Of a stretch of 64,000 bases of DNA, positions 6,204 through 63,019 are shown in pieces (the first letter of the stretch is position 1; every line of letters begins with the position of its first letter). The notes beneath the pieces were generated by a model, which saw only the letters and a list, made by a program, of their open reading frames with translations, made no database searches and had not been told where the DNA came from. The position numbers were made by a program, and so were the translations under genes. Source of the DNA: CAVYHJ01 sp963768165 [NCBI: uncultured bacterium] (GTDB lineage Bacteria; UBP4; UBA4092); the NCBI GenBank assembly GCA_963768165.1, contig CAVYHJ010000003.1:602286-666285 (forward strand), read 5' to 3'.

Positions 6204-6232
6204 ACTACGTTTATCTGGTGATAATAGTTTCA
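6204..6232 (-). promoter_or_regulatory. ECF-type promoter of the sigma operon (TGAAAC-N17-CGTAGT)
   Basis: On the minus strand TGAAAC (6232-6227) is followed after exactly 17 bases by CGTAGT (6209-6204). The same two hexamers at the same spacing occur upstream of the genes starting at 62261 and 62959. An AAC-containing -35 box and a CGT-containing -10 box are typical of ECF promoters. Which sigma factor uses it is inference. Its position before the sigma gene suggests self-activation. Confidence 0.65.
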
Positions 6233-6578
6233 CTTTTTTAAAAAAACGTCAAGAACTGCCAGAATATACTACCTGTGGCAACTTTATATACTCTATATTG
6301 AGGGAATCTTATGTATATATATATATAACCTTATGTATATATAACTGCTTTATTGATTTATACGGAGACTACGTAAGATACCAGAGATCAAAATCAAGAT
6401 AACAGCAAAACATTGAAAAATCCCAGAAAAAATATGATATTTCATAAATTTGGGATAGCAAAGATACCAACATAGTTCAATGAGAGTTAGTACGGCGTTG
6501 AAAGGGAGACAATAGGGAGTTAAATAGACCCATAATCGGAACGGTTACTACTTTAAAATTATTTTAAAATAGAAAAAC
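6233..6578. other. AT-rich divergent intergenic region
   Basis: About 350 bases separate the sigma operon (minus) from the PKD protein gene (plus). The stretch holds an alternating TA tract around 6312-6342 and no open frame with a ribosome site on either strand. Apart from the promoters listed at its two ends I see no further structure. Confidence 0.5.
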
Positions 6579-6605
6579 TTGACAACAAGAAAAAAATGGT
6601 ATAAA
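6579..6605 (+). promoter_or_regulatory. Candidate sigma-70 promoter of the PKD-repeat gene
   Basis: A perfect TTGACA (6579-6584) is followed after 15 bases by TATAAA (6600-6605). The spacing is short, so activity is uncertain. The leader to the ATG at 6681 would be about 70 bases. Confidence 0.45.
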
Positions 6606-6680
6606 TTAATTATTGAGGTTTTTTAATCCCCAAAAATAAGAGTAAAACTGTTTTAACCCATGAAAGGGAGGAGTCCGTGT

Positions 6681-9600
6681 ATGTACAGCAATAACTATTT
6701 TTGTTGGAGATTTATTGACCGTTTTCTTGTGAAAATGTGTCTGTTGTTTTTGTTTGTTTTTACGATTCAAAGTGCGAGGTTGTTCGCTTGGGATACGATT
6801 AATGGGGTGGCGATATGTACCGCCAGTGGAAATCAAATGTATCCTCAGTTGGTTGGGGATGGTGCTCAAGGCGCGATTATTACGTGGCAGGATGCACGCG
6901 GATCGAATGATGATATTTACGCGCAACGGGTGGATCTCAATGGAAACAATCTTTGGACATTAAACGGGAATGCGATTTGTACAGTGGGTGGAAACCAGAC
7001 TGTACCGCAGTTAGTCTCCGATGGAAGTGGTGGAGCCATTATTGTTTGGCAGGATGACAGGGGATCGAGTAACGATATTTATGCCCAAAGAGTAGATGGA
7101 AACGGTTCGACATTATGGACACTCAATGGAGTTGCTATCTGTACCGCTAGTGGAAATCAGACGGTTCCACAAATTGCCACAGACGGGTCAGGGGGAGCCA
7201 TTATTACCTGGCAGGACGCCCGGGGTACTAATGATATTTATGCCCAACGAGTAGACGGTAATGGCAATACTTTATGGACTGTAAATGGAGTGGCTATTTG
7301 TACAGCTGCTTCAAATCAAACTATTCCTCAGATTATTGCCGATGGAAACGGCGGAGCGATTATTGCTTGGCAGGATACTCGAAATGGAGCTACTAATAGT
7401 GATATTTATGCTCAAGATGTGAATGGAAATGGTGCGACATTATGGACTCTCAATGGTGTGGCTATTTGTACCGCCAGTGGTAACCAGACGGTGGTTCAAT
7501 TGGTATCCAATGGAGCCAATGGGGCGGTTCTCACCTGGCAAGACTCTCGAAATGCAGGCACTAACAATGATATTTACGCACAACAAATAGATAATACTGG
7601 AACCGTTCTTTGGACAATAAATGGAGTCGCTATTTGTACGGCTACAGGAGCTCAAGATGTACCGGAGATTTGTACGGATGGGTTGGGCGGAGCCATCATT
7701 TCTTGGGAAGATAGTCGGAATGCAGCAAACTCAGTTGATTTATACGCTCAAAGAGTCAATTCTGCAGGAAGTACATTATGGACAGTCAATGGCAACGTCG
7801 TAGTGAGTACAACAGGTCTTCAGCATGAACATAAATCAGCTCCTAACGGATCGAATGGAGCAACCTTTGTGTGGGATGATCACCGGGTTACCGGACAAGA
7901 ATGGATTTATTGCCAGAGTTTTGACAGTACCGGATTTGCCTCTTGTGGTGACAATGGAATATCTATTTCAACAGTCGGCGCCCATGATAATGCTCAAATT
8001 ATTGATACAGGTAATGGTAATGCTATTTTTGTATGGGATGACCAGCGTTCAGGAAACCATGACATTTACGCGCAGTCTTTTTATAACCCCTGTCAAATTA
8101 CACCTCCAGCACCCAATGCTGGCTTCTATGGCAGTCCAACCAGTGGGTATGGGGTATTAACCGTCAATTTCGTAGATACCTCAGCGAATGCGCCAACTTC
8201 ATGGGCGTGGGACTTTGGTGACGGAAATACAGATACGACTCAAAATCCAACACATATATATGGTACAGTATCAGCACCAACTTCATATAGTGTGCAGTTA
8301 ATAGCCAGTAATTCTTTTGGAACAACGACCGCCATTTATGTCAATTATATTTATGTGACAGAGCCTGCACCGGGTCAAAACGGAACGGGATTAGGTTTCT
8401 ATGGAACCCCGACCAGTGGATATGGACCGTTGACCGTGAATTTCCAGGATACGACAGGCGGTAATCCGACCTCTTGGTCATGGGATTTTGGTGATGGTGG
8501 AACAGATACAACCAATAATCCTGCTCCATCATATCAATATGCCGCGGTAGCAACACCAACAACCTATACAGTCACATTGGTTGTTAGTAACGCCTATGGC
8601 AGTACGACGATTATTAATACCAATTACATATATATTACCGAACCGGCTCCAGGTGGAAATGGGACCGGATTAGGATTTACGGGTTCACCCACCACTGGTA
8701 TTGGTCCATTAACTGTGAATTTCCAGGATACCACAGGCGGTAGTCCAACCTCGTGGTCATGGGATTTTGGTGATGGTGGAACGGATACAACCAATAACCC
8801 TGCTCCTTCATATCAATATGCCGCGGTAACGACACCGACATCCTATACAGTTACCCTGATAGTTGGAAACACTTTTGGTTCTAATACCATCAGCTATCCT
8901 AATTACATTACTGTGACCGAGCCAGTACCGGGAGGAAATGGTACCGGATTAGGATTTACAGGTTCACCCACTAGTGGTATTGGTCCATTAAATGTAAATT
9001 TCCAGGATACCACAGGTGGAGCCCCAACTTCATGGGCTTGGGACTTTGGTGATGGTGGAATGGATACGACCAATAATCCTTCACCTTCCCATCAATATGC
9101 GCCTGTAGTTGCACCAACCTTTTATACTGTGACGTTGATCCTAGGTAATGCATATGGGACAACCACGGTAAGCTATGTGAACTATATCTATGTAACAGAG
9201 CCGGATACTCTTAGCGCAGGATTTTACGGAACACCGACAGCAGGTTCTACACCGTTTAATGTGACTTTTGTAGATACTTCTGCTAACAATCCAACCAGTT
9301 GGTTATGGAATTTCGGAGACGGTAATACAGATACTACCCAAAATCCCGTTCATACGTATGGAACAGTGGGTGCGCCGACTACCTATACGGTTCAACTGAT
9401 TGTGAGCAATGTTTTTGGCAGCAGTACCGCGATATACAACAATTATATTTATGCGATTCCACCGACCTTGCCGATAGCTGGATTCTATGGAAATCCAACA
9501 GCGGGTTCCAGTCCATTCAATGTGAGTTTTGTGGATACTTCGGCGAATTATCCCGTTACATGGAATTGGGATTTCGGGGATGGGAATACGGATACGACCC

Positions 9601-12600
9601 AGAACCCCGTGCACACCTATGGGGTAGTAAGTGCGCCGACGACTTATACGGTGCAATTACTAGTGACCAACAGTACGGGGAGCAGCACATCCGTACGTGT
9701 TAATTATATTTATGCGATACCACCAACCGCACCGGTATCTGGATTCTATGGGAGTCCGACGGCAGGGGCTACACAGTTCAATGTGAATTTTATAGATACA
9801 TCAGCAAACTATCCGGTCACTTGGTTCTGGGATTTCGGTGACGGGAATACCGATACGACGCAGAATCCGACTCATACCTATGGTACGGTTTCGGCGTCTA
9901 CGGCTTACACAGTGGAACTGATCGTGGTGAACAGTTCTGGGACCAGCACAACGATACAAACAGATTATATCTATGCGATACCGCCGACACCGCCGATAGC
10001 CGGATTCTATGCAAGTCCGTCTAGTGGATACGGTGCTTTAACGGTGAATTTCACAGATACGTCAGCGAATTATCCCGTTACATGGAATTGGGATTTTGGT
10101 GACGGAAATACAGATACCACCCAAAATCCAAACCATGTCTATAGTGCAGTTGCGGCACCCACGACATATATCGTTCAATTAATTGTCACTAATAGTGATG
10201 GGACAAGTACCACATCCAATAATATATTTGTGACGGAACCTGCACCCGGGGGAAATGGTAGTGGTCTTGGATTTTATGGCACACCTACTTCCGGTTATGG
10301 ACCCTTGGAAGTGTTCTTCACTGATACAACCGGTGGAAATCCAACTTCATGGGCATGGGACTTCGGTGACGGTAGTACTGATACTGTAGATCAGAATCCA
10401 TCCCATCTTTATGGGTTTGTATCCGCACCAACTACTTATACTGTGCAATTGATCTTAAGTAATGCCTATGGTACCAGCACAGCGACTCAAATCAATTATA
10501 TATCTGTCACCGAACCACCACCGGGAGCTAATTTCAGTGGAAATCCGACCAGTGGATATGGTGCCTTGACGGTGAATTTCACCGATGAATCGGTTCCTCT
10601 AGTTCACGGGAATTCAGAAGTTAGCCCGACCTTGCCGACGAGTTGGTCATGGAGTTTTGGGGATGGCGGAACCAGCACAACCGAGAACCCACAATATATC
10701 TATAGCGTGGTAGGAAACCCGACCAGTTATACGGTTCAATTAATCACAGGCAATGCCTTTGGAAACAATACTGCCACCCAGACGAATTATATTTCAGTGA
10801 CTGAGCCCGGTCCAGTGGCTGGGTTTGGCGCCTCACCATTAAGCGGGTATGGTCCATTAACGACACAATTTAACGACCAGTCCTCGAGCTTGTACGGGAA
10901 TGGTATATGGTCATGGAACTTTGGCGATGGGAACACTGGCAGTGGGGCAACAACCACTCATGTGTATGCCACCGTGTCTGTTCCGACAAGTTACACCGTA
11001 GTGATGACAATAACCAATCCATTTGGCAGCAGCAGTGCAGTTCAAAGCAATGCAATTTCTGTAACGGAACCTGCGCCTGGAGGCAATGGGACGGGTTTAG
11101 GCTTTACGGGTAGTCCGACGAGTGGCTATGGCGCCTTGACGGTCTACTTCACGGATACGACGGGTGGTAATCCGACATCGTGGAGTTGGAATTTTGGAGA
11201 CGGGAATACGGGTAGTGGATTGAGCACGAGTCATGTGTATCAGACAGTGAGCGCGCCGACGTCTTACACGGTCACCCTGATTCTGAGTAATACCTTTGGG
11301 ACGGCAACCGTCACATATATCAACTATATTACTGTGGCTGAACCAGCACCTGTAGCAGGATTCTATGCGAATCCGACGAGCGGTTCAGGTCCGTTGACCG
11401 TGAATTTCACAGATACCTCGGCAAATAATCCGACGAGTTGGAGTTGGGATTTTGGGGACGGTGGCACCAGTACCAGCGAGAACCCGACGCATGCGTATTC
11501 TTCAGTGACAGGAAATATCTCATATACGGTGACGTTAATCGCCAGCAACGTTTTCGGGACGAGCACGGCGATTCAATCCAATTTAATTACTGTTTTGGTG
11601 CCTCCACCGCCATATGAGACGCAGTTACCGGACTTGAAATTATTCCCTGGACAATCGCTTCCGTTGGCGTTTGATATCAATGATTTCATTACGCCAGGAT
11701 CAGCGAATAGCTATTCAGTGATTACGAATTTCCTAGAGTTGACATCTTTGAGTAACAGTACGGTGAACGAATTAAGTTACGGTAGTCCGACAGTAGGATT
11801 AAATGCCTATGGAGCGTCCAATGGGTTGAGTACCAATACGGTAACGAACCTGGTGAAATATTCGACCTACAAGATACAGGAGTTACCGAAGATTGGATTA
11901 AATCCAGGTGAGTCGTATGTGATCAATGTAGCGAATTATACCTTGAGTGACGGGGCATCGTTACCGCCGCCGTCGTTTGGGAATCCGAGTTCGATTACAG
12001 TGAGTGACTTTACCCGGGTCACGGCATACTGGAGTGGGGATACGGCAGTAGTAGTCACCTCTTTGAGTCCCTTCTTTGGGGAAGTGGATGTGGATGTGAT
12101 AGCGGCGCCGGTAGCGGCCCCGCCGTATGGCGTGGATATAGACAAGGAACGGATTGCGGTATTTACCAATTTGTTATCGAACGGGACATTCAGCACAGCA
12201 AATGACACGACCAACTATGGGTTGGAAGTAGCACCTGGCCGACCTAACTTGGCGACGCATTCGTGGATATCGAGTTATACGGATTTGGCGGGGACTCAAG
12301 CGGATGGAGTGTGGAAATTTACCTTTAATGATGCCTCCAGCGGAGTGAAAGTAACGCCATTCCCGTATAATTGGCTATCGGTATACACGACGCAAGGCGC
12401 CTGGTATATCGCGCGGATGCATGTAGTATCGGATACGCCGAACAACACACACACGACGTTATTATTCTCCTTTAGCAATTTAATAAATGTCGGGGTAGGA
12501 ACGAATGTTGGGGCGAATGTATTATTCGGGACACCGACGACGTGGACCTGGTTGGAAGCTCCCTTCCTACTGCATGTTGCGAGTACGTCGGCGTTTCCGC

Positions 12601-13256
12601 AGTTTGAGTTGAAGGCGGGCGGAGCGGGTTCGATTTATGTAGACGAGTTGCAATTTATCAAAGCGACCCCGACGTTGATAGATGCGAACCGGGCCAGTAC
12701 GCGGTACAAGTATATTCATGGAGAATTTAATCAAGCGTCAGACACGGCGGATTGGGGACAGGAAGTGTATTTAGGTTCTTCCGGTGCGCCGGTATTTTCG
12801 GTGAGCAGTGGATATTTACGGGTAGATTTTTCCGGGGCAACTTCGGGGAGCGGTCAGAAAGGGTTTAAATGGACGGCCAGTACAACCGGTAGCGGAAATG
12901 GGCTTGTGACACCGGAGGCGACTCCCGGCAGACAGATTGGGGCACAGTTGACCTTGACCAAGGAGACAGGGAGTTTCGATTCCTTATTGTTGGTGGTATT
13001 AACGGCGATAGGGGTACAGAGCAGCGGTCAATATGGTTTTGGAGTACCGCCGAGCAATTTGGTAGCGGAGGCGGGAGTGGGTGCGTTGGCAGAAGGAGAG
13101 TATCGGACCGTAGGGACAGCCCTAAATGGATATTATCAATTCCAGTTTGGGTTGCGCAGTGATGAACCAGGCATCCTGGATGTCAGTAATGTGGATTTTG
13201 ACCGGGATGTGAACGATCCTAATTACGGAGACTCTTCGCTCTATCCTTATCCTTAA
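6681..13256 (+). CDS. Giant secreted protein: beta-propeller-like repeats, 13 PKD domains, jelly-roll C-terminus
   Basis: I start at ATG 6681 rather than 6660 because GGGAGGAG (6665-6672) is a good ribosome site only for the later ATG. Residues 10-38 are a signal sequence. Then come eight repeats of about 54 residues with the pattern NG-AICT-SGNQ ... GGAII-WQD-R ... DIYAQRV (about 40-475), probably a beta-propeller. Thirteen PKD domains follow (about 480-1640), each with a W-W-FGDG core. The C-terminal 550 residues include two jelly-roll, carbohydrate-binding-like modules opening NGTFSTANDT and HGEFNQASDT. The second module is paralogous to the fragment at 1-290 and related to the end of the protein at 26424. 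PKD arrays usually mediate surface display or polymer binding. No catalytic motif is visible, so adhesion or substrate binding is the likely role. Confidence 0.85.
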   Translation: MYSNNYFCWRFIDRFLVKMCLLFLFVFTIQSARLFAWDTINGVAICTASGNQMYPQLVGDGAQGAIITWQDARGSNDDIYAQRVDLNGNNLWTLNGNAICTVGGNQTVPQLVSDGSGGAIIVWQDDRGSSNDIYAQRVDGNGSTLWTLNGVAICTASGNQTVPQIATDGSGGAIITWQDARGTNDIYAQRVDGNGNTLWTVNGVAICTAASNQTIPQIIADGNGGAIIAWQDTRNGATNSDIYAQDVNGNGATLWTLNGVAICTASGNQTVVQLVSNGANGAVLTWQDSRNAGTNNDIYAQQIDNTGTVLWTINGVAICTATGAQDVPEICTDGLGGAIISWEDSRNAANSVDLYAQRVNSAGSTLWTVNGNVVVSTTGLQHEHKSAPNGSNGATFVWDDHRVTGQEWIYCQSFDSTGFASCGDNGISISTVGAHDNAQIIDTGNGNAIFVWDDQRSGNHDIYAQSFYNPCQITPPAPNAGFYGSPTSGYGVLTVNFVDTSANAPTSWAWDFGDGNTDTTQNPTHIYGTVSAPTSYSVQLIASNSFGTTTAIYVNYIYVTEPAPGQNGTGLGFYGTPTSGYGPLTVNFQDTTGGNPTSWSWDFGDGGTDTTNNPAPSYQYAAVATPTTYTVTLVVSNAYGSTTIINTNYIYITEPAPGGNGTGLGFTGSPTTGIGPLTVNFQDTTGGSPTSWSWDFGDGGTDTTNNPAPSYQYAAVTTPTSYTVTLIVGNTFGSNTISYPNYITVTEPVPGGNGTGLGFTGSPTSGIGPLNVNFQDTTGGAPTSWAWDFGDGGMDTTNNPSPSHQYAPVVAPTFYTVTLILGNAYGTTTVSYVNYIYVTEPDTLSAGFYGTPTAGSTPFNVTFVDTSANNPTSWLWNFGDGNTDTTQNPVHTYGTVGAPTTYTVQLIVSNVFGSSTAIYNNYIYAIPPTLPIAGFYGNPTAGSSPFNVSFVDTSANYPVTWNWDFGDGNTDTTQNPVHTYGVVSAPTTYTVQLLVTNSTGSSTSVRVNYIYAIPPTAPVSGFYGSPTAGATQFNVNFIDTSANYPVTWFWDFGDGNTDTTQNPTHTYGTVSASTAYTVELIVVNSSGTSTTIQTDYIYAIPPTPPIAGFYASPSSGYGALTVNFTDTSANYPVTWNWDFGDGNTDTTQNPNHVYSAVAAPTTYIVQLIVTNSDGTSTTSNNIFVTEPAPGGNGSGLGFYGTPTSGYGPLEVFFTDTTGGNPTSWAWDFGDGSTDTVDQNPSHLYGFVSAPTTYTVQLILSNAYGTSTATQINYISVTEPPPGANFSGNPTSGYGALTVNFTDESVPLVHGNSEVSPTLPTSWSWSFGDGGTSTTENPQYIYSVVGNPTSYTVQLITGNAFGNNTATQTNYISVTEPGPVAGFGASPLSGYGPLTTQFNDQSSSLYGNGIWSWNFGDGNTGSGATTTHVYATVSVPTSYTVVMTITNPFGSSSAVQSNAISVTEPAPGGNGTGLGFTGSPTSGYGALTVYFTDTTGGNPTSWSWNFGDGNTGSGLSTSHVYQTVSAPTSYTVTLILSNTFGTATVTYINYITVAEPAPVAGFYANPTSGSGPLTVNFTDTSANNPTSWSWDFGDGGTSTSENPTHAYSSVTGNISYTVTLIASNVFGTSTAIQSNLITVLVPPPPYETQLPDLKLFPGQSLPLAFDINDFITPGSANSYSVITNFLELTSLSNSTVNELSYGSPTVGLNAYGASNGLSTNTVTNLVKYSTYKIQELPKIGLNPGESYVINVANYTLSDGASLPPPSFGNPSSITVSDFTRVTAYWSGDTAVVVTSLSPFFGEVDVDVIAAPVAAPPYGVDIDKERIAVFTNLLSNGTFSTANDTTNYGLEVAPGRPNLATHSWISSYTDLAGTQADGVWKFTFNDASSGVKVTPFPYNWLSVYTTQGAWYIARMHVVSDTPNNTHTTLLFSFSNLINVGVGTNVGANVLFGTPTTWTWLEAPFLLHVASTSAFPQFELKAGGAGSIYVDELQFIKATPTLIDANRASTRYKYIHGEFNQASDTADWGQEVYLGSSGAPVFSVSSGYLRVDFSGATSGSGQKGFKWTASTTGSGNGLVTPEATPGRQIGAQLTLTKETGSFDSLLLVVLTAIGVQSSGQYGFGVPPSNLVAEAGVGALAEGEYRTVGTALNGYYQFQFGLRSDEPGILDVSNVDFDRDVNDPNYGDSSLYPYP
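6800..8090 (+). repeat. Eight in-gene repeats of about 160 bp (propeller-like units)
   Basis: Successive units start WDTINGVAICT, WTLNGNAICT, WTLNGVAICT and so on. Each encodes about 54 residues including a GGAII-WQD core and DIYAQ. The first six are closely similar. The last two are divergent, as expected for capping blades. Confidence 0.8.
8110..11600 (+). repeat. Thirteen tandem PKD-coding repeats
   Basis: Each unit is about 250-300 bp and encodes GFYG-PTSG ... W-WDFGDG ... Y-V-L. Several neighbours share long near-identical DNA stretches, for example around 9570-9620 and 10085-10130. This indicates recent duplication or gene conversion, and the array may vary in number between strains. 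Confidence 0.85.
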
Positions 13257-13283
13257 ATCTAGTAAACAGTGAATAGGATAATT

Positions 13284-13320: not shown

Positions 13321-13403
13321 ACTGAACGTTGGCCGGAATATTCAATGTTTCATTAAAACTATCCTACCCACCCCTCCTTTAAAATGATAAAATATCTAAT
13401 ACC

Positions 13404-16653: not shown

Positions 16654-16690
16654 GTGTAAGAAAATGCCTTCGAGATGACACTGCTATAGT
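16654..16690 (+). promoter_or_regulatory. Promoter-like block, copy 1 (upstream of second ECF sigma gene)
   Basis: GTGTAA (16654-16659) is followed by 11 bases and then CGAGATGACACTGCTATAGT (16671-16690). Copy 2 lies 131 bases downstream with 17 identical bases in the core, and a looser copy 3 is at 19135. The fixed spacing from GTGTAR to the GATG core and to TG-C/T-TATA in all three points to a shared promoter or operator. Confidence 0.6.
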
Positions 16691-16784: not shown

Positions 16785-16821
16785 GTGTAGTAAAAATCGC
16801 TTGAGATGACACTGCTATAAT
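16785..16821 (+). promoter_or_regulatory. Promoter-like block, copy 2 (at the start of the second ECF sigma gene)
   Basis: GTGTAG (16785-16790) is followed by TTGAGATGACACTGC and a perfect TATAAT (16816-16821) with an extended -10 TGC. The sigma-gene ATG at 16820 lies within this block. Transcripts starting here would therefore either be leaderless or use a later start codon. Confidence 0.6.
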
Positions 16822-17398
16822 GAGAGATAATACACGGGTACAGTCAGACCGACGGAAAATAAATGCAGAATTGGTAGAGAAAATTCTAGCAGGAAATAAT
16901 GAAGCATTCACAGAGTTGGTTAAAGAACATTACGCGATTTTTTTCGCACTAGCATTACGGTATGTGCATGATATGGGTCGTGCCGAGGATATTGTACAGG
17001 ATGGATTAATGACGATTCATAAAGAATTGGGAACCTTGCGGAATCCGGAACAGTTCAGTTCTTGGGCGTATACCATTATCCGTAGGAAATCCATTCGGGC
17101 TATTAAAAATATATCTCGTGAATCGAAGGTTATGATGCAATACGCTGAAAATGAAGAAATAAGGAAAATCCGCGAGAAATCAGAGGAAACGATAAATTTG
17201 TCTCATAAAAAAGAGACGATTATGAAAGGAATTTCACAACTTTCAAATAAATATCGGGAAGTTATGGTGCTGTATTATCTGGAGGAATTGGATTTTAAAC
17301 AAATCAGCAAAAGACTTTTTTTAAGTCGGCGGGCGACGGATATCCGGTTATACCGGGCTAGAAAAAAGTTGAAGGAAATTTTGGGAGGAATCCTTTGA
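16820..17398 (+). CDS. ECF-type RNA polymerase sigma factor
   Basis: Region 2 is seen in LALRYVHDMGRAEDIVQDGLMTIHKEL and FSSWAYTIIRRKSIR. Region 4 is LSNKYREVMVLYYLEELDFKQISKRLFLSRRATDIRLYRARKKL, with an intact helix-turn-helix. The length of 192 is normal. The start is uncertain: ATG 16820 overlaps a promoter-like TATAAT and has no ribosome site, and an in-frame TTG at 16871 would still leave a complete region 2. The gene is translationally coupled (ATGA overlap) to its anti-sigma gene at 17395. Two upstream copies of a promoter-like block suggest autoregulation. Confidence 0.85.
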   Translation: MRDNTRVQSDRRKINAELVEKILAGNNEAFTELVKEHYAIFFALALRYVHDMGRAEDIVQDGLMTIHKELGTLRNPEQFSSWAYTIIRRKSIRAIKNISRESKVMMQYAENEEIRKIREKSEETINLSHKKETIMKGISQLSNKYREVMVLYYLEELDFKQISKRLFLSRRATDIRLYRARKKLKEILGGIL

Positions 17399-55466: not shown

Positions 55467-56033
55467 TCATACTCCCGTTTCGTGTGAAACAACGGATTCT
55501 GCGTTTACTAAACGTGCTATCGCTTCGGCGAATTCTTCTGTCTGGGCCGAACTTTGAGCGGTTATTATATTTCCGTCAATTTCAACAGCCGTTCCCGTAT
55601 AATGCGCGCCCGACGCCTGCAGCTTCGTTTCTTCCGTTGCCAATACCGTCGCACATTTATGATGGAGCATTTCCGCATGAGCCAGGATCATCGGGGCATA
55701 ATCAATCGCTCCTATAATTTTTCCCTTCTGGTTTGCTTTTTGTAAAACCCTATGGAGATTCGCGTCATTATAATGGTCCCGTGCACCGGTTCCACCAATC
55801 AAGATAACTGCATCACACTCATCGAAATTAATATCAGAGGCCTTGATTTCCGGTTTCAAGGTTTCATTATGCATTCCGGTAATCGGAGCAACTATGGAAG
55901 ATACCGCGCGAACTGGCTTGATCTGATTTTGTTTGAATACTTTTTCGAGAGTATGGACTTCCGTTTCGTCGCACTGTTTGGAAGGAATTATCAGTACGGC
56001 CGTCTTCTTGTATTTATGACCAAAGCCAAACAT
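55467..56033 (-). CDS. DJ-1/PfpI-family protein lacking the nucleophile cysteine
   Basis: The fold is recognisable from the N-terminal strand and Glu region (TAVLIIPSKQCDETEVHTLEKVF), CDAVILIGGTGARDHY and the terminal NAESV helix. At the nucleophile elbow, where active members read A-I-C-H-G-P, this protein has A-I-D-Y-A-P (GAIDYAPMILAHAEM). Both catalytic Cys and neighbouring His are thus replaced, and protease, glyoxalase or deglycase activity is not expected. It may be a binding or sensor protein. GGAGG precedes the ATG. It is a single gene just downstream of the IS4-type insertion. Confidence 0.8.
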   Translation of the reverse strand: MFGFGHKYKKTAVLIIPSKQCDETEVHTLEKVFKQNQIKPVRAVSSIVAPITGMHNETLKPEIKASDINFDECDAVILIGGTGARDHYNDANLHRVLQKANQKGKIIGAIDYAPMILAHAEMLHHKCATVLATEETKLQASGAHYTGTAVEIDGNIITAQSSAQTEEFAEAIARLVNAESVVSHETGV

Positions 56034-56134
56034 TCGTATTCACCTCCTCCCTGGAGAGAATACCAGTCCTCAATTTTTCTACTCTATCTTGTACCATAAA
56101 TCAAATCCAAAATCAAATAAATCTTTAAATATAG

Positions 56135-56140
56135 TACAAT
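56135..56140 (+). promoter_or_regulatory. -10 box of the small membrane protein gene
   Basis: TACAAT lies exactly six bases before ATG 56147, with no ribosome site, suggesting a leaderless transcript. The -35 region is not convincing. Confidence 0.4.
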
Positions 56141-56146
56141 ACTCTT

Positions 56147-56515
56147 ATGGCATGGGGACAAGGAAAAGGTCGCAAATCACCGCTGGTGGCTAGGATTCTA
56201 TCTTTTATAATTCCCGGATTGGGTCATATCTACGCAACTCAATTTGTTGAAGGGATTTCCTGGTTTTTCATAGCCATCCCTTTTCTACTGCTTGTCATTT
56301 ACTGCTACCACTTGGATCAGAATTTAGAAAAAGCAATTAGTCCCTATCCTTATTTCTCAAGGGGCTGGGGAGGATTTGATATTCTTGATATCCCTTTCGT
56401 AGTATATATCTTATACTTAATTGGGTGTGCGAATTCTTCCGCAAATGCTACGATTACTTATAACGTTGCAAAACAAGAAAAAGAAATCGCCCTTCAGGAT
56501 AACCACCGGCGTTAA
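56147..56515 (+). CDS. Small TM2-like membrane protein
   Basis: The 122-residue protein has three hydrophobic stretches. The first opens with LSFIIPGLGHIYATQFVEGISWFFIAIPF, the PGLGHIY turn typical of TM2-domain and related two-helix membrane proteins. The N-terminus (MAWGQGKGRKSPLVAR) and C-terminus (VAKQEKEIALQDNHRR) are basic and charged. The function of such proteins is not known. The gene stands alone. Confidence 0.7.
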   Translation: MAWGQGKGRKSPLVARILSFIIPGLGHIYATQFVEGISWFFIAIPFLLLVIYCYHLDQNLEKAISPYPYFSRGWGGFDILDIPFVVYILYLIGCANSSANATITYNVAKQEKEIALQDNHRR

Positions 56516-56761
56516 CGCCAATTTCCAAAACATCCTCCTGCAGAAAATGGGCTTGCCTTTGGAGAATACCTAATTCAATTGCGTCAAAATAAAGACACTG
56601 GATTTCCCTTTTCAGGGGAATGACACCTCTCCCCTCCGTCATTCCTTATCCCTCTCTTTGTTATCCCTGTACAAGTCTTGAGTCCTGATTCTTTTTATCG
56701 AACCGGGAATCCAATATCTTTATTTTGTGAAAGTAACAAAATATGGCATAGTATACACAAT

Positions 56762-57196
56762 ATGAAATTTGGTTCTAGATTTGTACGTTGGTTATTTAAA
56801 GTACCCGAGGATATTGGTACTCCAAGTTCAGTTATAGTATGGTGGGAAAAGCGTCGTATTCCATACAATATCATTGTTGGATCAGGAGCTATCATTAGTC
56901 TGGTTCTATTTTATGTTTTTATATTATCGGCAAATGTCTTACAGCCGGGGGAAGACGCTGAAGAGCCGCTTGGATTACTTTTTGGTGCAATAGTAGGACC
57001 TATTTTAATAAATATCTGTTATACCGTAGGTTGGGTTACCGAAATCTTTGCTCGCATAGTTTTACATAATAAGTCCAATAAATTAGGACCACAGTTGTTC
57101 AAATTGGGAATTGGATTTTCGCTTTTTATTGTATTTATACCATCACTTTATTGGTTTGGTTATTGCCTTCTAAAATTTATCGGAATGATCAAATAA
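56762..57196 (+). CDS. Membrane protein of unknown function
   Basis: The frame opens at a TTG (56678), but ATG 56762 is preferred: TTGTGA and TAGTAT with an 18-base spacer lie upstream, and the -10 is seven bases before this ATG. The 144-residue protein has WWEKRRIPYNIIVGSGAIISLVLFYVFIL and two further hydrophobic segments (about 70-95 and 110-140). I recognise the WWEKRR-PYN opening as a recurring feature of small bacterial membrane proteins without known function. It converges on the HtrA-like gene with an 11-base gap. Confidence 0.6.
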   Translation: MKFGSRFVRWLFKVPEDIGTPSSVIVWWEKRRIPYNIIVGSGAIISLVLFYVFILSANVLQPGEDAEEPLGLLFGAIVGPILINICYTVGWVTEIFARIVLHNKSNKLGPQLFKLGIGFSLFIVFIPSLYWFGYCLLKFIGMIK

Positions 57197-57207
57197 TTGC
57201 AATCTTC

Positions 57208-58233
57208 TTAAACCCTAAACTCCGGATAGATATCCAATTTCTTTAATTCCGTCCCACGGATGATTGTCAAAACGGATTTCACACCGACTTGATTTTCGGT
57301 CAAGAGACGATGCAAATCATCAATTCCGCTGACGGGTTGGTCATTGAATCCGATAATCAAATCCCCTTCGCGCACACCCGCCCGTTCCGCCGGACTAGAT
57401 TTTTCAATCGAAATAATCCATATCGCGTTTTCGACCGGCAAGTTGTAATATCGCACAATTTTTCGGAGAATGGGTACGTTCTGTCCCGCCAATCCAATAT
57501 ATCCCCGGCGGATTTTCCCGTCTTTAATCAACCGCCCGGCAACAAATTTTGCCGTATTAATCGCAATGGCAAAACAAATCCCCTGCGCCGGTAAAATCAC
57601 CGCCGTGTTGACACCGATAACTTCGCCCCGGGAATTCACCAGCGGTCCGCCGGAATTGCCCGGATTGAGCGCCGCGTCGGTTTGAATCACATTATCAATC
57701 AATCTTCCCGATTGTCCCCGCAAGGTCCTGCCGAGCGCGCTTACCACACCCGCCGTCAAGGTGCATTGAAACCCGTAGGGGTTGCCAATCGCAATCGCCA
57801 TCTGTCCCACTTGTATCTCTTTGGAATCGCCCAGTTTCACCGGCACCAATTCCGTCCCGCCGATGCGAATGACCGCCAAATCCGTGTCCGGGTCATCCCC
57901 CATCAAGACCGCAGGAAATTTCCGTCCATCTGGCAAACTCACATCTATCTTATCCGCGCTATGCACCACGTGACTGTTGGTCAGGATAAATCCGTCCGGC
58001 GTGAAAATAAATCCCGAGCCGCTCCCGCCTCTTTCTTCGGGTGTGCGTTGAGGATTTCTTTGGGAATTCTTCACCTTGTGCCGAACTTCAATATTCACCA
58101 CCGACGGGCTGACCAATTTTGAAACACCCGTTACTGCCTGCGAATACGTATCCAATAATAGCCCGTCAGAAATTGGCTTTACACTATTTTCCTGCTCTTT
58201 TACCAATTCGTCTGTAGACACAAATTCCAACAT
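57208..58233 (-). CDS. HtrA/DegP-like serine protease with PDZ domain, no signal peptide
   Basis: The trypsin-like domain (about 30-235) has an intact triad: His in LTNSHVVHSAD, Asp in DPDTDLAVIRI, Ser in ALNPGNSGGPLVNSRGEVIGVNT. One PDZ domain follows (about 245-335, GVREGDLIIGFNDQPVSGIDDLHRLL). Family members degrade misfolded proteins, usually in the periplasm. The chain starts MLEFVSTDELVKEQENSVKP with no hydrophobic segment, so it looks cytoplasmic unless a start was missed. It is divergent from the HxlR regulator gene at 58393, which may control both. Confidence 0.88.
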   Translation of the reverse strand: MLEFVSTDELVKEQENSVKPISDGLLLDTYSQAVTGVSKLVSPSVVNIEVRHKVKNSQRNPQRTPEERGGSGSGFIFTPDGFILTNSHVVHSADKIDVSLPDGRKFPAVLMGDDPDTDLAVIRIGGTELVPVKLGDSKEIQVGQMAIAIGNPYGFQCTLTAGVVSALGRTLRGQSGRLIDNVIQTDAALNPGNSGGPLVNSRGEVIGVNTAVILPAQGICFAIAINTAKFVAGRLIKDGKIRRGYIGLAGQNVPILRKIVRYYNLPVENAIWIISIEKSSPAERAGVREGDLIIGFNDQPVSGIDDLHRLLTENQVGVKSVLTIIRGTELKKLDIYPEFRV

Positions 58234-58292
58234 AATCTTTCTTCCTACCTCCTCCCTTTTTATTATTCTACTACTTTACTTTCTATAAATCA

Positions 58293-58336
58293 AGTACATA
58301 CTTAATAGTTATATACTTACTTCTTAGTATGATACT
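58293..58336. promoter_or_regulatory. Candidate HxlR operator sites
   Basis: AGTACATACT (58293-58302) and AGTATGATACT (58326-58336) form an imperfect inverted pair, with ATACTTACTT between. HxlR/DUF24 regulators bind AT-rich palindromes containing TACTTA-like halves. The sites lie between the divergent protease and hxlR-like genes. Confidence 0.4.
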
Positions 58337-58348
58337 CGTTTAAATAGA

Positions 58349-58377
58349 TTGTATTGGCGGAGTCTTGATGCTATACT
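58349..58377 (+). promoter_or_regulatory. Promoter of the HxlR-type gene
   Basis: TTGTAT (58349-58354), 17 bases, TATACT (58372-58377) with an extended -10 TGC. The AAGGAA ribosome site directly follows the predicted start point. Confidence 0.65.
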
Positions 58378-58392
58378 AAAGTAAGGAACAGT

Positions 58393-58779
58393 ATGGACAA
58401 GACCAAACCCAATATTTTGAACCAACAATGCGGGACGAGGGAAGTTCTTGATTTAATTGCCGATAAATGGACGGCGATTATTATCTATATTCTCGCCAAA
58501 GGCACCAAACGGTATAGCGAATTATTGCGGGAGATTGACGGGGTATCCCAGAAAATGTTAACCCAGACCCTGCGGAATCTGGAACGGGATGGGATTGTGG
58601 AACGGAAAGTATACCCGGTTGTCCCCCCGATGGTGGAATATTCCCTCACTCCGCTCGGTAAAACCCTCGTCGAACCCTTGAAAGCCATCTGCAAATGGGC
58701 GGAAACCCATCTCTCTGAAGTCCAATCCGCCCGAATCAAGCACGACAAATCCCATCCTAAAAAGTCCTTTACCACCTGA
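58393..58779 (+). CDS. HxlR-family (DUF24) winged-helix transcriptional regulator
   Basis: The 128-residue protein has the family hallmarks: an N-terminal Cys (QQCGTREVLDLIADKWTAIIIYILAKGTKRYSELLREIDGVSQKMLTQTLRNLERDGIVERKVYPVVPPMVEYSLTPLGKTL). The single conserved cysteine is where HxlR/YodB-type regulators sense quinones, aldehydes or thiol stress. Most repress a divergent neighbour, here the HtrA-like protease, but the link is inferred. AAGGA lies just before the ATG. A hairpin follows the gene. Confidence 0.9.
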   Translation: MDKTKPNILNQQCGTREVLDLIADKWTAIIIYILAKGTKRYSELLREIDGVSQKMLTQTLRNLERDGIVERKVYPVVPPMVEYSLTPLGKTLVEPLKAICKWAETHLSEVQSARIKHDKSHPKKSFTT

Positions 58780-58804
58780 CCATCCACTCTTCTACCGTCT
58801 TGTA

Positions 58805-58831
58805 AGCGGAATTGAGATTTTCAATTCCGCT
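58805..58831. repeat. Dispersed hairpin, GGAATTG family, copy 2
   Basis: Perfect 11-bp stem AGCGGAATTGA/TCAATTCCGCT with a 5-base loop. The arms and TTTT in the loop match the hairpin at 43454. It lies 25 bases after the hxlR-like gene and could be an attenuator or a REP-like element. There is no T-run. Confidence 0.55.
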
Positions 58832-58926
58832 CCCACTCCGTATTTGGTCGGTGATGAAGAGCAGTTTTATTCTCAGTTGAGGCAAACCGGACACGTCTAG
58901 GATTTCCATGAGATGATAGGCAAATT

Positions 58927-59184
58927 TTAGTTCTGCCAATTCGGAGGAGTTTTAATTTTGGGTTTAATCCAGGCACTGACCCCGTTGAGTTGGCGGTTGC
59001 CGTCGAATCCGGAATGAACAATCTCAATCTCCGCGTCAGGATATTTTTGCTGGATCGCCATTTCCAAATCTAGCATGGAATCTTCGGGAAACGGATGATC
59101 CACCGAACAGACAAAATTATATTCCGGCAATAGGACATATCCGTCCGCGGTTAATTTGGCATATAAATCCGTATTGTAACCCAT
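58927..59184 (-). CDS. Small hypothetical protein
   Basis: An 85-residue soluble protein (MGYNTDLYAKLTADGYVLL ... VSAWIKPKIKTPPNWQN) with no recognised motif. TATAAT lies exactly six bases before the ATG on the minus strand (59196-59191), a leaderless arrangement seen at other genes here, which supports that it is real. Its neighbours give no hint of function. Confidence 0.5.
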   Translation of the reverse strand: MGYNTDLYAKLTADGYVLLPEYNFVCSVDHPFPEDSMLDLEMAIQQKYPDAEIEIVHSGFDGNRQLNGVSAWIKPKIKTPPNWQN

Positions 59185-59259
59185 GGCTCAATTATAGACG
59201 AATTGATGAAGCGGGAAAATCTTTTTGACTTATTTAGTAATACGGAGTGTATAATATCA

Positions 59260-61140
59260 TTAAAGTTTGGATGTTGTATCTGACACTGCGGGTGAGGTAG
59301 TATCCTCCAAAAACTGGGAGGATGTCTCCTCGCCAACCTGTTCTACACTGATTATTTTACATTTAACCTGTTGCTTTTCAGTCATTGTGTGTTTTTGTTC
59401 TTTGGAACCGCCTTTTCCCGGTAGGTTCATCGTTATTTCAAAAACCATATTTTGGTTTTGTGAGGATTCAGTCGTCACTCCCTTGGCTGGATCCTCGAAG
59501 GAGTACCCCGCGAATTGCAAATCCTTCATGTCTATATGGATCGGTATATTTGATTGAGGTAAAGTGGAGGGTGATACGGCTTTCATAGTCCCGCTATAGT
59601 TCAATAAGGCACAGGTCACACCTTCATATTCTCTCCAACCGGTAAAGGTACAGTTCACATCTATTTTCATTTTCCCAATTATGGGAACATCCTGTTCTAT
59701 ATTAAATGGCCAGGTTTCCCCAATCTGAATTGGCCGTTCCGGTATAGAGCTTATGGAACTGAAACCTTCTAAGATGTTCTTATAATAATCTGGATTTAAC
59801 GTGCTGATGAATACTTGACCTATCGGTGTATTAAAACTGCCCTTGAGTTTCTCCTCTAACTCTGTATTTCCGGACATTGATTCCACCTTCCCGTCGGCTC
59901 CCAACATCATGGTTATTTTCTCCCCCAAAATAGCTCTAAAAGTGTCTTCCATATGTTTATCCAGTAAAGATGTTGATTCCGAATTGCTATCCAATACCAT
60001 TTTGCCATCTTTACTATCTATTTCCATCTTAAATGAATCAATTTGTAAATCAATTGCATATCCACCTTCCGGTCGTGAGGATACCGTAGTTAAGGCAATA
60101 TCTTCTGTAATGTGTGTGTTGGTTTCTGCGGAATGTTGGATGTCAGGTGTTTCCGAATTTATTTCTATCCGGAGCACTCTCTTTTCTCCCACATTCCATT
60201 TCCTCCGAAAATTCAATGGTTCCTTTGACACAGACTCCGTAGTCGCCGGAAGTTCCGGCGCTTTGACCGGTGGTGCGGTCATTTTCCTTTCGGTTCCTGT
60301 GAAGTATTGATACGTGAAATATCCGCCAACACCTATCGCAATGACCAAGATTAAAATGACTAACTTTTTCATAATTGCTCCTGTTTTATTTTGTATAGGT
60401 TTCATCGGATCAATCCAATTTCCAACCTTTTGCTTATGTTGAATCGGCATTACCGCCGGTTTGGTATACTCCGCCGCTCCAGTTTGTTTATTTTTTTTGA
60501 CTACGACCTCGCCGGTCTTGTTCTTAAATGCCACTTTCCCTTTTAACACTTTCAAAATCGTCTGCTTCTCTTTATTTACTTCTGTATCAAAATCTGTCCC
60601 TATGACGCTCAGCACCGCCGAAGGCGTTTGTATCTCAAACCTTTCCCTCTGCGGATTCATCATGGAAAAAATTTCACCCAACCGCAGTGTCAGAGGGTAC
60701 GCCGATGTCTGGAAATCCAATTCGGTATTCTTGTTAATATAAATTTGGCTTCCATCTTTCCAAAGTACCAGCGCTTTACTTTCACCGACGGTCAGTAACG
60801 TATCCCCCTTGCGTAAGGCACAACCGGGAAATGCCTCGAGTTCATCTCCCTTTGTACCTGTGCGGATGATTACTGTTCCAACAACGGAATTGATTTCTCC
60901 AACAATCTCACCCTGTGTATCCATTTTCTCCGTCTTAATTCCATCCAGGAATATCGGAGAATCTGCTGCTTTCATCTTCTCTGGGACCCGCAGGAAGGAT
61001 CCGGACAACTCAAGTATCTCAACTTTTTTCCGGCACTTCTCACATCCATCCAGATGTTTCCTAACACTGTCTTGACCGGTTGGTGTTAACTGATGATCCA
61101 GGTAAACGGAGATTTTTTTTAACGAAGGATGAAACATCAT
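59260..61140 (-). CDS. Zinc-finger anti-sigma/FecR protein fused to a secreted-type domain
   Basis: An anti-sigma finger (HLDGCEKC, about 29-36) is followed directly by a FecR domain (about 85-225, LRKGDTLLTVGESKALVLWKDGS ... TPSAVLSVIGTDFDTEV). Only then comes a membrane helix (about 259-280), and a 340-residue extracytoplasmic domain resembling DUF6263-type proteins (WNVGEKRVLRIEIN ... ERPIQIGETWPFNIEQ). FecR domains normally lie after the helix. Residue 257 is a Met (ATG at 60372) preceded by AGGAG at a perfect distance, and MKKLVILILVIAIGVGGYF resembles the starts of the proteins at 62261 and 62959. The ORF may therefore be a fusion, or the second half may be translated separately. It overlaps the sigma gene by four bases. 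Confidence 0.8.
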   Translation of the reverse strand: MMFHPSLKKISVYLDHQLTPTGQDSVRKHLDGCEKCRKKVEILELSGSFLRVPEKMKAADSPIFLDGIKTEKMDTQGEIVGEINSVVGTVIIRTGTKGDELEAFPGCALRKGDTLLTVGESKALVLWKDGSQIYINKNTELDFQTSAYPLTLRLGEIFSMMNPQRERFEIQTPSAVLSVIGTDFDTEVNKEKQTILKVLKGKVAFKNKTGEVVVKKNKQTGAAEYTKPAVMPIQHKQKVGNWIDPMKPIQNKTGAIMKKLVILILVIAIGVGGYFTYQYFTGTERKMTAPPVKAPELPATTESVSKEPLNFRRKWNVGEKRVLRIEINSETPDIQHSAETNTHITEDIALTTVSSRPEGGYAIDLQIDSFKMEIDSKDGKMVLDSNSESTSLLDKHMEDTFRAILGEKITMMLGADGKVESMSGNTELEEKLKGSFNTPIGQVFISTLNPDYYKNILEGFSSISSIPERPIQIGETWPFNIEQDVPIIGKMKIDVNCTFTGWREYEGVTCALLNYSGTMKAVSPSTLPQSNIPIHIDMKDLQFAGYSFEDPAKGVTTESSQNQNMVFEITMNLPGKGGSKEQKHTMTEKQQVKCKIISVEQVGEETSSQFLEDTTSPAVSDTTSKL

Positions 61141-61691
61141 AACAGCCCATCCCCCTGTGCTTTTTTCAATAAGAACTCCCGTGCATGAAACAAACGCTTG
61201 GTCACCGTGCTTACCGGAATCCCCAATACCTGCGCAATCTCCTTATAAGAGGAATCATGGAGATACCTTAACAAAATAACCTCTCGATAATTCTCCGGCA
61301 GCGAGTACACATAATTGGAGATTTTTTCCAACTGCTCTTCTGAATAAGAAGACCGTTGGCCGGAATCCGGGGGATCATATCCCAATTCACCGAGAGAGAT
61401 AGTTGGGATTTTGTTTTCTCTCCCCAGATTCCGCCATTTGTTTTTCAAAATTCCCAAAAGCCATCCCGGAAATGCCTTCGGCTCCTTTAACCGTCCCAAA
61501 TGTTGATACCCTGTAATAAACGTATCTTGTGCCAAATCCATCGCCACTTCCCTATTCCTGCATAAATGAAACGCATACCCCTTGACCAAATTCTGATACC
61601 GCTCCATTAATTGACCATACATTTCCTTGTCTCCATGTATAACCGCTTGAATAATTTCTTCATCTGTTCGATTGTCTATACTCTGATTCAC
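61137..61691 (-). CDS. ECF-type RNA polymerase sigma factor
   Basis: Region 2 (YAFHLCRNREVAMDLAQDTFITGYQHLG, FPGWLLGILKNKWRN) and region 4 (LPENYREVILLRYLHDSSYKEIAQVLGIPVSTVTKRLFHAREFL) are complete over 184 residues. The stop overlaps the start of its anti-sigma gene by four bases. Upstream lies a 67-base element shared with 63100-63168, possibly its promoter or an operator. The TGAAAC-N17-CGTAGT motif is not present in front of it. Confidence 0.9.
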   Translation of the reverse strand: MNQSIDNRTDEEIIQAVIHGDKEMYGQLMERYQNLVKGYAFHLCRNREVAMDLAQDTFITGYQHLGRLKEPKAFPGWLLGILKNKWRNLGRENKIPTISLGELGYDPPDSGQRSSYSEEQLEKISNYVYSLPENYREVILLRYLHDSSYKEIAQVLGIPVSTVTKRLFHAREFLLKKAQGDGLL

Positions 61692-61738
61692 AATTCATCT
61701 ATCTCTCTCGCTATATAGGTAACCCATAGCGCGGTTTT

Positions 61739-61806
61739 CATCCTAAACTTTGTAAAACCACCAAATTATCCCATAAATCCTTGGTTTTACTATAGGGTTG
61801 TAAGTT
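61739..61806. repeat. 67-bp intergenic element, copy A
   Basis: On the plus strand CATCCTAAAC ... AATTATCCC-TAAATC-TTG-TTTT--TATAG matches copy B at 63100-63168 at roughly 70% of positions with one 1-base length difference. It lies about 50 bases upstream of the third ECF sigma gene. Confidence 0.6.
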
Positions 61807-61880
61807 GTAGGTAAGATTTTCTAAACGTGAGGAATATACATGGTAGAGCTAGAATTAGAATTTCTAATACCAGTTTTTAA

Positions 61881-62261
61881 TTATATCCCGCCATCCACTT
61901 GCCAGACATGGGCAGGGTTGTCATTATGGATTTGCAGACGGAATTTCTTGATCTCTCCTGATTTAAGTTTGATTTTATACGGCACACACAATCCCTCGAT
62001 CCAAAAAGGCTTGTACGGTTTCCCAATATAGATAATTTCCAAACCGACTAAATTCTTTTTGGCATAGTCTTTTAAATTGTCATAATAAGGGCAATAAACT
62101 TTGGCTTTCGCCTCATCCCCCGCAGAACAGGCTTGAAAAAAATTGGTGGCAACATCCTGAACAGACTTGGTATCTTGGGTAGAGATGGAAGACTTAAATA
62201 GATATGCCCCACCATAAACAATGATGGTAAGAACAATAATAATAATACCCAGCTTTTTCAT
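61881..62261 (-). CDS. Small membrane-anchored or exported protein
   Basis: A 126-residue protein with an N-terminal helix (MKKLGIIIIVLTIIVYGGAYLF) and an NTF2-like small domain (VQDVATNFFQACSAGDEAKAKVYCPYYDN ... FRLQIHNDNPAHVWQVDGGI), similar in style to DUF4878-type lipoprotein domains but without a lipobox. AAGGAGGAG precedes the ATG. The leader contains TGAAAC-N17-CGTAGT, so ECF control is likely. The promoter, leader and first codons closely resemble those of the gene at 62357-62959. Confidence 0.75.
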   Translation of the reverse strand: MKKLGIIIIVLTIIVYGGAYLFKSSISTQDTKSVQDVATNFFQACSAGDEAKAKVYCPYYDNLKDYAKKNLVGLEIIYIGKPYKPFWIEGLCVPYKIKLKSGEIKKFRLQIHNDNPAHVWQVDGGI

Positions 62262-62294
62262 AACTCCTCCTTTTTGAGTTCCATACTACTTATC

Positions 62295-62323
62295 ACTACG
62301 TTCTTTTCCCGAAGAAAGTTTCA
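62295..62323 (-). promoter_or_regulatory. ECF-type promoter (TGAAAC-N17-CGTAGT)
   Basis: TGAAAC (62323-62318) and CGTAGT (62300-62295) on the minus strand with a 17-base spacer, 33 bases before the ATG at 62261. Same as 6204-6232 and 62991-63019. Confidence 0.65.
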
Positions 62324-62356
62324 AAGAATGGATTTTGATTAAAAATCAGTCGCGTT

Positions 62357-62959
62357 CTATCCTTCCACCGGAATATAGATATCTACCTGCGAATCCGGAT
62401 CGTTCGGTTTCTTGAAGCGGTCGTCATAAGACTCGAAAGATTCTGCTTGTTTCACCTTCTTTCCGGATTTGGGCAGCCACACTTGATAAATATAGGAATA
62501 AGAATTCCCGATATTACTGTACGGACCTTTATGCGTAAATACCGCGTATTTCACTGCCGGAATGGTCTTCCCCGTCATCCCCTGGGGAACCGAATCTGTA
62601 TTATTGACTCCCATGCAAATCATATACGTAAACGGCGTGTTCTCATTGAATCCAGTGCGGTCCATATAATCATAGACCCCGAAAAGCACCTTGTTATCAA
62701 TTCTCCCTTGAATCTCATCGGCACGTTTCATCAACTCCCCAAACGCATTGTTTATTTCCATGATACAATTTTTCCGGGTCGTCTGGAGTTGCATCCCGAT
62801 AACGGGAAGGTCTCCCTGGTCTACCCATTGCGGTTCTTGTGCGACCAGCCATTTCCCCGTCGGACTCATAAAACCGGGTGCAGCATAATAATTCTGATAG
62901 ACCCAATACCCTCCAATCATTAACACCAGAACTACTGTAATAATGCCCAACTTTTTCAT
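62357..62959 (-). CDS. Membrane-anchored GyrI-like effector-binding domain protein
   Basis: ATG 62959 is preferred over the in-frame start at 62980 because AAGGAGGAATT directly precedes it. An N-terminal helix (MKKLGIITVVLVLMIGGYWVY) anchors a GyrI-like/AraC-effector-binding domain (about 45-200: VIGMQLQTTRKNCIMEINNAFGELMKRA, KTIPAVKYAVFTHKGPYSNIGNSYSYIYQVWLP, QVDIYIPVEG). Such domains bind small molecules, usually in the cytoplasm, so an exported version is unusual. The upstream ECF-type promoter suggests stress control. Confidence 0.82.
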   Translation of the reverse strand: MKKLGIITVVLVLMIGGYWVYQNYYAAPGFMSPTGKWLVAQEPQWVDQGDLPVIGMQLQTTRKNCIMEINNAFGELMKRADEIQGRIDNKVLFGVYDYMDRTGFNENTPFTYMICMGVNNTDSVPQGMTGKTIPAVKYAVFTHKGPYSNIGNSYSYIYQVWLPKSGKKVKQAESFESYDDRFKKPNDPDSQVDIYIPVEG

Positions 62960-62990
62960 AATTCCTCCTTTTGAAATCAAAACTACTTAT

Positions 62991-63019
62991 TACTACGTTT
63001 TTTTCAAAAAAAAGTTTCA
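62991..63019 (-). promoter_or_regulatory. ECF-type promoter (TGAAAC-N17-CGTAGT)
   Basis: TGAAAC (63019-63014) and CGTAGT (62996-62991) on the minus strand with a 17-base spacer, 31 bases before the ATG at 62959. The geometry is almost the same as at 62295-62323. Confidence 0.65.

What the first reader, a model, noticed from the sequence alone, without database searches (positions are those of the whole stretch)
6204..63019. A shared ECF promoter, TGAAAC-N17-CGTAGT, links a sigma operon to two membrane-anchored protein genes 56 kb away
Three intergenic or leader sites (6232-6204, 62323-62295, 63019-62991, all minus) have both hexamers at exactly 17 bases. One precedes an ECF sigma gene and the other two precede genes whose proteins both start MKKLGI. 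The combination of box sequence and spacing fits ECF promoters and suggests a regulon controlled by the first sigma factor. It also moves the sigma start codon from 6233 to 6185.
Basis: partly seen in the sequence, partly recalled or inferred. Interest (0 to 1): 0.65.

Follow-up and report, generated by a model that had tools for sequence, protein, structure and literature searches.

The report
SigW-like sigma factor and its promoters
A bacterial stress-type sigma factor probably switches on its own operon and two distant genes for membrane-anchored proteins through one shared promoter sequence; the design is an ordinary one, but related genomes show an unusually clear fingerprint of it.

Summary
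The three boxes are real, with one error: sites 1 and 2 are TGAAAC-N17-CGTAGT, but site 3 (63019-62992) has N16. Sites 2 and 3 are diverged copies of one leader, so they are not independent. Recurrence alone proves little, because 175 hexamer pairs at N16/17 recur at three or more places in the window. Relatives carry the argument. Among 90 distinct homologous sigma genes, 16 have a recognition helix of sig1's type (KTxL[FY]R); 15 of those 16 have [TC]GAA[AT]C-N17-CGTA upstream, against 1 of the other 74. Two other helix classes have other -35 boxes at the same spacing (TGCAAC 5 of 5, xxCAAC 6 of 6). The published SigW consensus is TGAAAC-N16,17-CGTA. Of the window's three ECF sigmas only sig1 keeps the three residues with which SigW reads TGAAAC. 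So sig1 most likely autoregulates, starts at 6185, and also drives the gyrI and ntf genes. Not shown: any transcript, or conservation of the two distant targets. Kind: an ordinary ECF regulon, a new member of a known kind.

The parts
6204..6232 (-). Site 1: -35 TGAAAC (6232-6227), N17, -10 CGTAGT (6209-6204); predicted autoregulatory promoter of sig1
   Evidence: same boxes, spacing and position upstream of homologous sigma genes
5589..6185 (-). sig1, SigW-like ECF sigma factor, start ATG 6185 (in-frame ATG 6203 abuts the -10 box; GTG 6233 precedes the -35 box)
   Evidence: Pfam Sigma70_r2 and r4_2; best NCBIfam model SigW, 179.4 bits, below its cut-off of 209; PDB SigW 5wuq E=1.7e-38
5011..5592 (-). 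anti1, probable anti-sigma factor (HxxxCxxC motif), overlaps the end of sig1 by 4 bases
   Evidence: zf-HC2 E=0.0011, 19.5 bits against a cut-off of 22.2; weak homology to the ORFs after sigma genes in relatives; only weakly hydrophobic segments
3389..4993 (-). gh2, third gene of the operon: GH2 sugar-binding fold, bactofilin-like stretch (below Pfam cut-off), several hydrophobic segments
   Evidence: 9 near full-length homologues in 291 genomes, each downstream of a sigma gene
62992..63019 (-). Site 3: TGAAAC (63019-63014), N16, CGTAGT (62997-62992); predicted sig1-dependent promoter of gyrI
62357..62959 (-). gyrI, MKKLGI-start protein with N-terminal hydrophobic segment and GyrI-like small-molecule-binding domain
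   Evidence: PF06445 E=1.2e-26; hydropathy; PDB relatives
62295..62323 (-). Site 2: TGAAAC (62323-62318), N17, CGTAGT (62300-62295); predicted sig1-dependent promoter of ntf
61881..62261 (-). ntf, small MKKLGI-start protein with N-terminal hydrophobic segment; no Pfam family; name 'ntf' is only a working label
   Evidence: structure model of low confidence, mean pLDDT 57.5

Best explanation
The gene at 6185-5589 encodes a SigW-like ECF sigma factor (sig1). With RNA polymerase it recognises TGAAAC, 16 or 17 bases, CGTA(GT). From site 1 it transcribes its own operon (sigma, anti-sigma, GH2N/bactofilin-like membrane protein), a positive feedback loop. From sites 3 and 2 it transcribes two unlinked genes for anchored proteins, one with a GyrI-like small-molecule-binding domain. 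At rest the anti-sigma would hold sig1, and an envelope signal would free it. Shown here: the sites, the gene order, the co-occurrence of helix type and -35 box in homologues, and the conserved sigma-to-gh2 gene order. Inferred: binding, transcription, the anti-sigma's action, the signal, and regulation of the two distant genes.
For: SigW consensus TGAAACN16,17CGTA fits all three sites (passage). In 79 homologues [CT]GAAAC-Nx-CGTA lies upstream in 14 at x=17 and in 0 at any other x from 10 to 25, and in 0 on the other strand at x=14-19. Of 90 distinct sigmas, 15 of 16 with a KTxL[FY]R helix have the GAA box against 1 of 74 others; KSHxHR helices 5 of 5 TGCAAC, KSxLH-type 6 of 6 xxCAAC, all N17. 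All 15 gh2-linked stretches that I fetched hold a sigma gene upstream of the gh2 homologue on the same strand and an A[AT]C-N17-CGTA promoter. sig1 keeps T168, K170, T171 and R175 of SigW. TGAAACC-N16-CGTA is found 46 times against 15 for the reversed pattern in 9 such genomes.
Against: No transcript data. The gyrI homologues (4 of 291 genomes) lack the anchor and a TGAAAC promoter, so the distant targets are not conserved. Sites 2 and 3 are copies. sig1 has N where SigW has R172, a backbone contact. One helix-matched homologue, L065, lacks the promoter, and one without the helix, L013, has it. The strict motif gave only 12 hits against 4 control hits in ten genomes, 4 of the 12 being the sigma genes' own sites. 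The tree does not place sig1 in the Armatimonadota clade.
Confidence: 0.75

Rival explanations
1. Sites 2 and 3 are promoters of sig3 (61691-61137), the ECF sigma encoded just downstream of the two target genes; only site 1 belongs to sig1.
For: Proximity: sig3 lies about 190 bases beyond the end of ntf. A further element of about 60 bases is shared by the DNA upstream of sig3 and upstream of gyrI, so sig3 and gyrI may share some control.
Against: sig3 has none of the three base-reading residues K170, T171, R175, and no A[AT]C-N15-18-CGT candidate was found in the roughly 300 bases upstream of it. Its anti-sigma has no relative at E<=1e-20 in 291 genomes, so its own promoter type could not be inferred.
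Confidence: 0.12
2. A different ECF sigma of similar specificity, encoded elsewhere in the genome and outside the window, uses sites 2 and 3, alone or together with sig1.
For: Genomes of relatives hold many ECF genes, and the rest of this genome could not be searched.
Against: Site 1 in front of sig1 has the same boxes, and most homologues with this helix type carry such a promoter in front of themselves.
Confidence: 0.1
3. The three sites are a chance recurrence found by searching a large space of motifs.
For: 175 hexamer pairs at N16/17 recur at three or more places in the window, and sites 2 and 3 are copies of each other.
Against: Boxes, N17 spacing and position are conserved upstream of homologous sigma genes and go with the recognition helix.
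Confidence: 0.03

Closest known systems
Bacillus subtilis SigW (with anti-sigma RsiW)
   Same: Promoter consensus TGAAACN16,17CGTA (PMC2375139, passage); best NCBIfam and PDB match of sig1; residues that read the -35 box kept (PMC6713349, passages).
   Different: Score below the SigW equivalog cut-offs; a gh2 gene follows the anti-sigma gene; the two distant targets are not known SigW targets as far as I recall (no call).
ECF sigma factors in general (AAC at -35, CGT at -10, autoregulated with a co-transcribed anti-sigma)
   Same: These hallmarks are stated in PMC8103513 (passages); the boxes and gene order here fit them.
   Different: Nothing in kind; the -35 box differs between helix classes within one related set, which fits the published residue-to-base code mentioned in the same passages.
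GyrI-like small-molecule-binding proteins
   Same: PF06445 domain in the site 3 target; PDB relatives are multidrug-type regulators.
   Different: Here behind an N-terminal hydrophobic segment and without a DNA-binding domain; hydrolase activity known for a subfamily (PMC5684135, search listing and start of abstract only) was not tested.

Membership tests
ECF (group IV) sigma factor | Only sigma2 and sigma4 domains | tested here: met
   Pfam Sigma70_r2 30-97 and r4_2 137-186 in a 198-residue protein
ECF (group IV) sigma factor | Promoter with AAC in the -35 and CGT in the -10 box upstream of its own gene | tested here: met
   site 1; conserved in homologues
ECF (group IV) sigma factor | Cognate anti-sigma gene directly downstream | tested here: inconclusive
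   anti1 overlaps sig1 by 4 bases; zf-HC2 below the Pfam cut-off
ECF (group IV) sigma factor | Positive autoregulation | not testable with these tools
   inferred from the promoter alone
SigW equivalog | Score above the curated NCBIfam cut-off | tested here: not met
   179.4 against 209 bits and 161.8 against 243.1 bits
SigW equivalog | K170, T171 and R175 that read the -35 box | tested here: met
   sig1 aligned with SigW; contacts from PMC6713349
SigW equivalog | Release from a membrane anti-sigma by regulated proteolysis under envelope stress | not testable with these tools
   no experiment; anti1 segments are only weakly hydrophobic

The most novel reading that the evidence does not exclude
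A widespread, undescribed envelope-stress system: a SigW-like sigma, its anti-sigma and a sugar-binding/bactofilin-like membrane protein that may act as sensor, whose -35 box has shifted together with the recognition helix in at least three classes. In this lineage a promoter-leader-anchor cassette has been duplicated to bring new exported domains, GyrI-like among them, into the regulon.
Probability: 0.3. Interest if true: 0.55.

Novelty: new member of a known kind. Interest (0 to 1): 0.38.

Why it matters
It gives a testable sigma-promoter assignment in an unplaced lineage from sequence alone. The homologues form a natural series in which recognition-helix changes and -35 box changes go together, useful for checking published ECF specificity codes. 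It also ties a conserved but unexplained GH2N/bactofilin-like membrane protein to a stress-type sigma operon.

Tried and rejected
Rejected: 17 bases at all three sites. Rejected: sites 2 and 3 as independent evidence. Rejected: significance from recurrence alone. Not possible: a count in the window's own genome.

Taxonomic placing failed. The closest gh2 homologue is 41% identical, in the phylum of the Armatimonadetes record L001; gh2 gave 0 of 118 and 0 of 84 genomes at E<=1e-35 in two other phyla. The window's pyrophosphatase matched 10 of 12 genomes reached, at 34-47% in the longer alignments and 61% over 255 residues in one fragment.

gyrI homologues as conserved targets: 4 of 291 genomes; two without anchor, two fused to an AraC-like part, none with a TGAAAC promoter; one weak ECF-like candidate (TTTAAC-N17-CGTATA) lies 172 bases before the match in L157. 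Relatives of the sig3 anti-sigma: 0 of 291 at E<=1e-20. Rfam on the window: 0 matches. ntf structure: mean pLDDT 57.5, so no fold search was made. Papers: 'Armatimonadetes' with 'ECF sigma factor', 0; 'bactofilin' with 'ECF' and 'anti-sigma', 2, seen as listings only.

Row handling: the 79 rows are the 18 loci, the 4 automatic loci and 57 places that I took from its listed matches, mostly from the strong end but not strictly in order, and without regard to promoters; the listing itself was cut. Of the 37 genomes matching gh2 I fetched 15 (9 near full-length, 6 matching only the C-terminal part); most of the others match only the sugar-binding domain, and one C-terminal match at a contig end was left. 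94 sigma rows became 90 after identical ones were removed; seven very distant rows were left out of the tree. Of the 46 sites, 30 were read.

Full report
What is there. The window has exact TGAAAC-N17-CGTAGT at 6232-6204 and 62323-62295 on the minus strand, with none in 100 shuffles. The third site is 63019-62992 with a 16-base spacer. Site 1 precedes three genes in a row: sig1 (ECF sigma), anti1 (probable anti-sigma) and gh2 (GH2 sugar-binding fold, a bactofilin-like stretch below Pfam's cut-off, several hydrophobic segments). Sites 3 and 2 precede gyrI and ntf, whose proteins both start MKKLGI and carry one hydrophobic segment at the N-terminus. The two leaders align from promoter to first codons, so one is a copy of the other.

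Is it more than chance? Recurrence alone is weak evidence: 175 hexamer pairs at N16/17 occur at three or more places in this window, a pair and its reverse complement counted apart. The strength comes from outside. B. subtilis SigW, the best match of sig1 among NCBIfam models and PDB chains, has the published consensus TGAAACN16,17CGTA (PMC2375139, passage), which covers all three sites and both spacings.

Comparison with relatives. No whole genome is held for the window. A scan of genome contigs gave 18 sigma homologues, the best (38%) in an Armatimonadetes record. A draw of 121 genomes from that record's phylum gave matches in 110 at E<=1e-30, the best 45% identical. In 79 homologues taken by protein similarity, [CT]GAAAC-Nx-CGTA lies upstream in 14 at x=17, in none at any other x from 10 to 25, and in none on the other strand at x=14-19. 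With 15 stretches chosen by linkage to gh2 homologues and identical sequences removed, 90 sigmas remain. Of 16 with helix GT[VI]KT[HLMN]L[FY]R, 15 have xGAA[AT]C-N17-CGTA (two of them TGAATC); the exception is L065. Of the other 74, one has it, L013 (Fisher p 5.5e-15, not corrected for relatedness). Five with KSHxHR helices have TGCAAC and six with KSxLH-type helices have xxCAAC, all at N17; 42 with KS[RK]LNR have none. The loose test AAC-Nx-CGTA gives 25 at x=17, 1 at x=20 and 0 at the other nine spacings from 12 to 22.

Which sigma? The window has three ECF sigmas: sig1, sig2 (16820-17398) and sig3 (61691-61137). PMC6713349 (abstract and passages) reports that SigW K170, T171 and R175 make the purine-specific contacts to G-35, A-34 and G'-31. 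sig1 keeps all three, sig2 only R175, sig3 none. Against a perfect fit, sig1 has N where SigW has R172, a backbone contact. Neither sig2 nor sig3 has an A[AT]C-N15-18-CGT candidate upstream. I therefore assign the three sites to sig1, while a further sigma of like specificity elsewhere in the genome cannot be excluded.

Operon. gh2 has 9 near full-length homologues (34-41% identity) among 291 genomes of that phylum; 37 genomes match at E<=1e-25, most of them by one domain. In all 15 stretches that I fetched (the 9 and 6 with C-terminal matches) a sigma gene lies upstream of the gh2 homologue on the same strand, and an A[AT]C-N17-CGTA promoter precedes it. An anti1-like sequence was detected by tblastn in 4 of these 15, and in one more, G115, by comparing ORFs; anti-sigma sequences diverge fast, so this is a lower bound.

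Regulon in relatives. The strict motif TGAAAC-N17-CGTAGT gave 12 hits against 4 for the reversed pattern in ten genomes with this sigma type, 4 of the 12 before the sigma genes themselves, and 1 against 0 in ten genomes without a sigma match at E<=1e-30: weak. TGAAACC-N16-CGTA gave 46 against 15 in nine such genomes; by place, nine of the 46 are the sigma genes' own sites, which is why those genomes were chosen, leaving 37 against 15. Of 30 sites read, 8 precede the sigma gene and 4 others lie inside ORFs of 250 codons or more and are probably chance. Targets that recur in two genomes are an ABC transporter ATPase (64% identical), a zinc-ribbon-like protein (31%) and two kinds of small membrane protein (36%, 49%); single ones include an HlyD-type adaptor, a beta-lactamase-fold protein, and a DUF2089 gene followed by DUF4097 and SHOCT-domain genes. 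This resembles an envelope-stress regulon, as SigW's is (PMC6713349 passages). The window's own targets have no counterpart in it.

Start codon. The TGAAAC box begins 47 bases before ATG 6185. Site 1 begins 77 bases before the codon of sig1 residue 11; in homologues of the same helix class the box begins 75-92 bases before the aligned codon.

Limits and kind. There are no transcript data. The tree leaves sig1 unplaced relative to the Armatimonadota sigmas of its helix class, so helix and box may be inherited together or convergent; the shared sigma-gh2 gene order favours inheritance. AAC/CGT boxes, autoregulation and a residue-to-base code are established for ECF sigmas (PMC8103513 passages; PMC3817407 passages). 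This is therefore a new member of a known kind.

Noticed in passing
16672-16688 and 16803-16819 (+): Exact 17-base direct repeat GAGATGACACTGCTATA upstream of sig2, the second copy abutting ATG 16820; 2 matches against a shuffle mean of 0.01. Perhaps a sig2 promoter or operator.
   Followed up: no
61735-61795 (-) and 63096-63157 (-): An element of about 60 bases (GATTTANGGGATAATT ... TTTAGGATGAAAA) upstream of both sig3 and gyrI; it may be a second promoter shared by the two.
   Followed up: partly
60341-60385 (-): A third, weaker copy (69%) of the Shine-Dalgarno/MKKL start region lies in frame inside the sig3 anti-sigma ORF (59260-61140), before its hydrophobic segment and DUF6263 domain; the ORF may be a fusion of two genes.
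   Followed up: no
L110:4878-5663: Secreted protein behind a TGAAACC-N16-CGTAGT promoter in genome G126, weakly similar to the window's sig3 anti-sigma, which has a DUF6263 domain (59 residues, E=4e-4); no Pfam match of its own.
   Followed up: partly
L141-L155 and L019-L039: The -35 box of sigma genes related to sig1 changes with the recognition helix (TGAAAC, TGCAAC, xxCAAC) at constant N17 spacing.
   Followed up: yes
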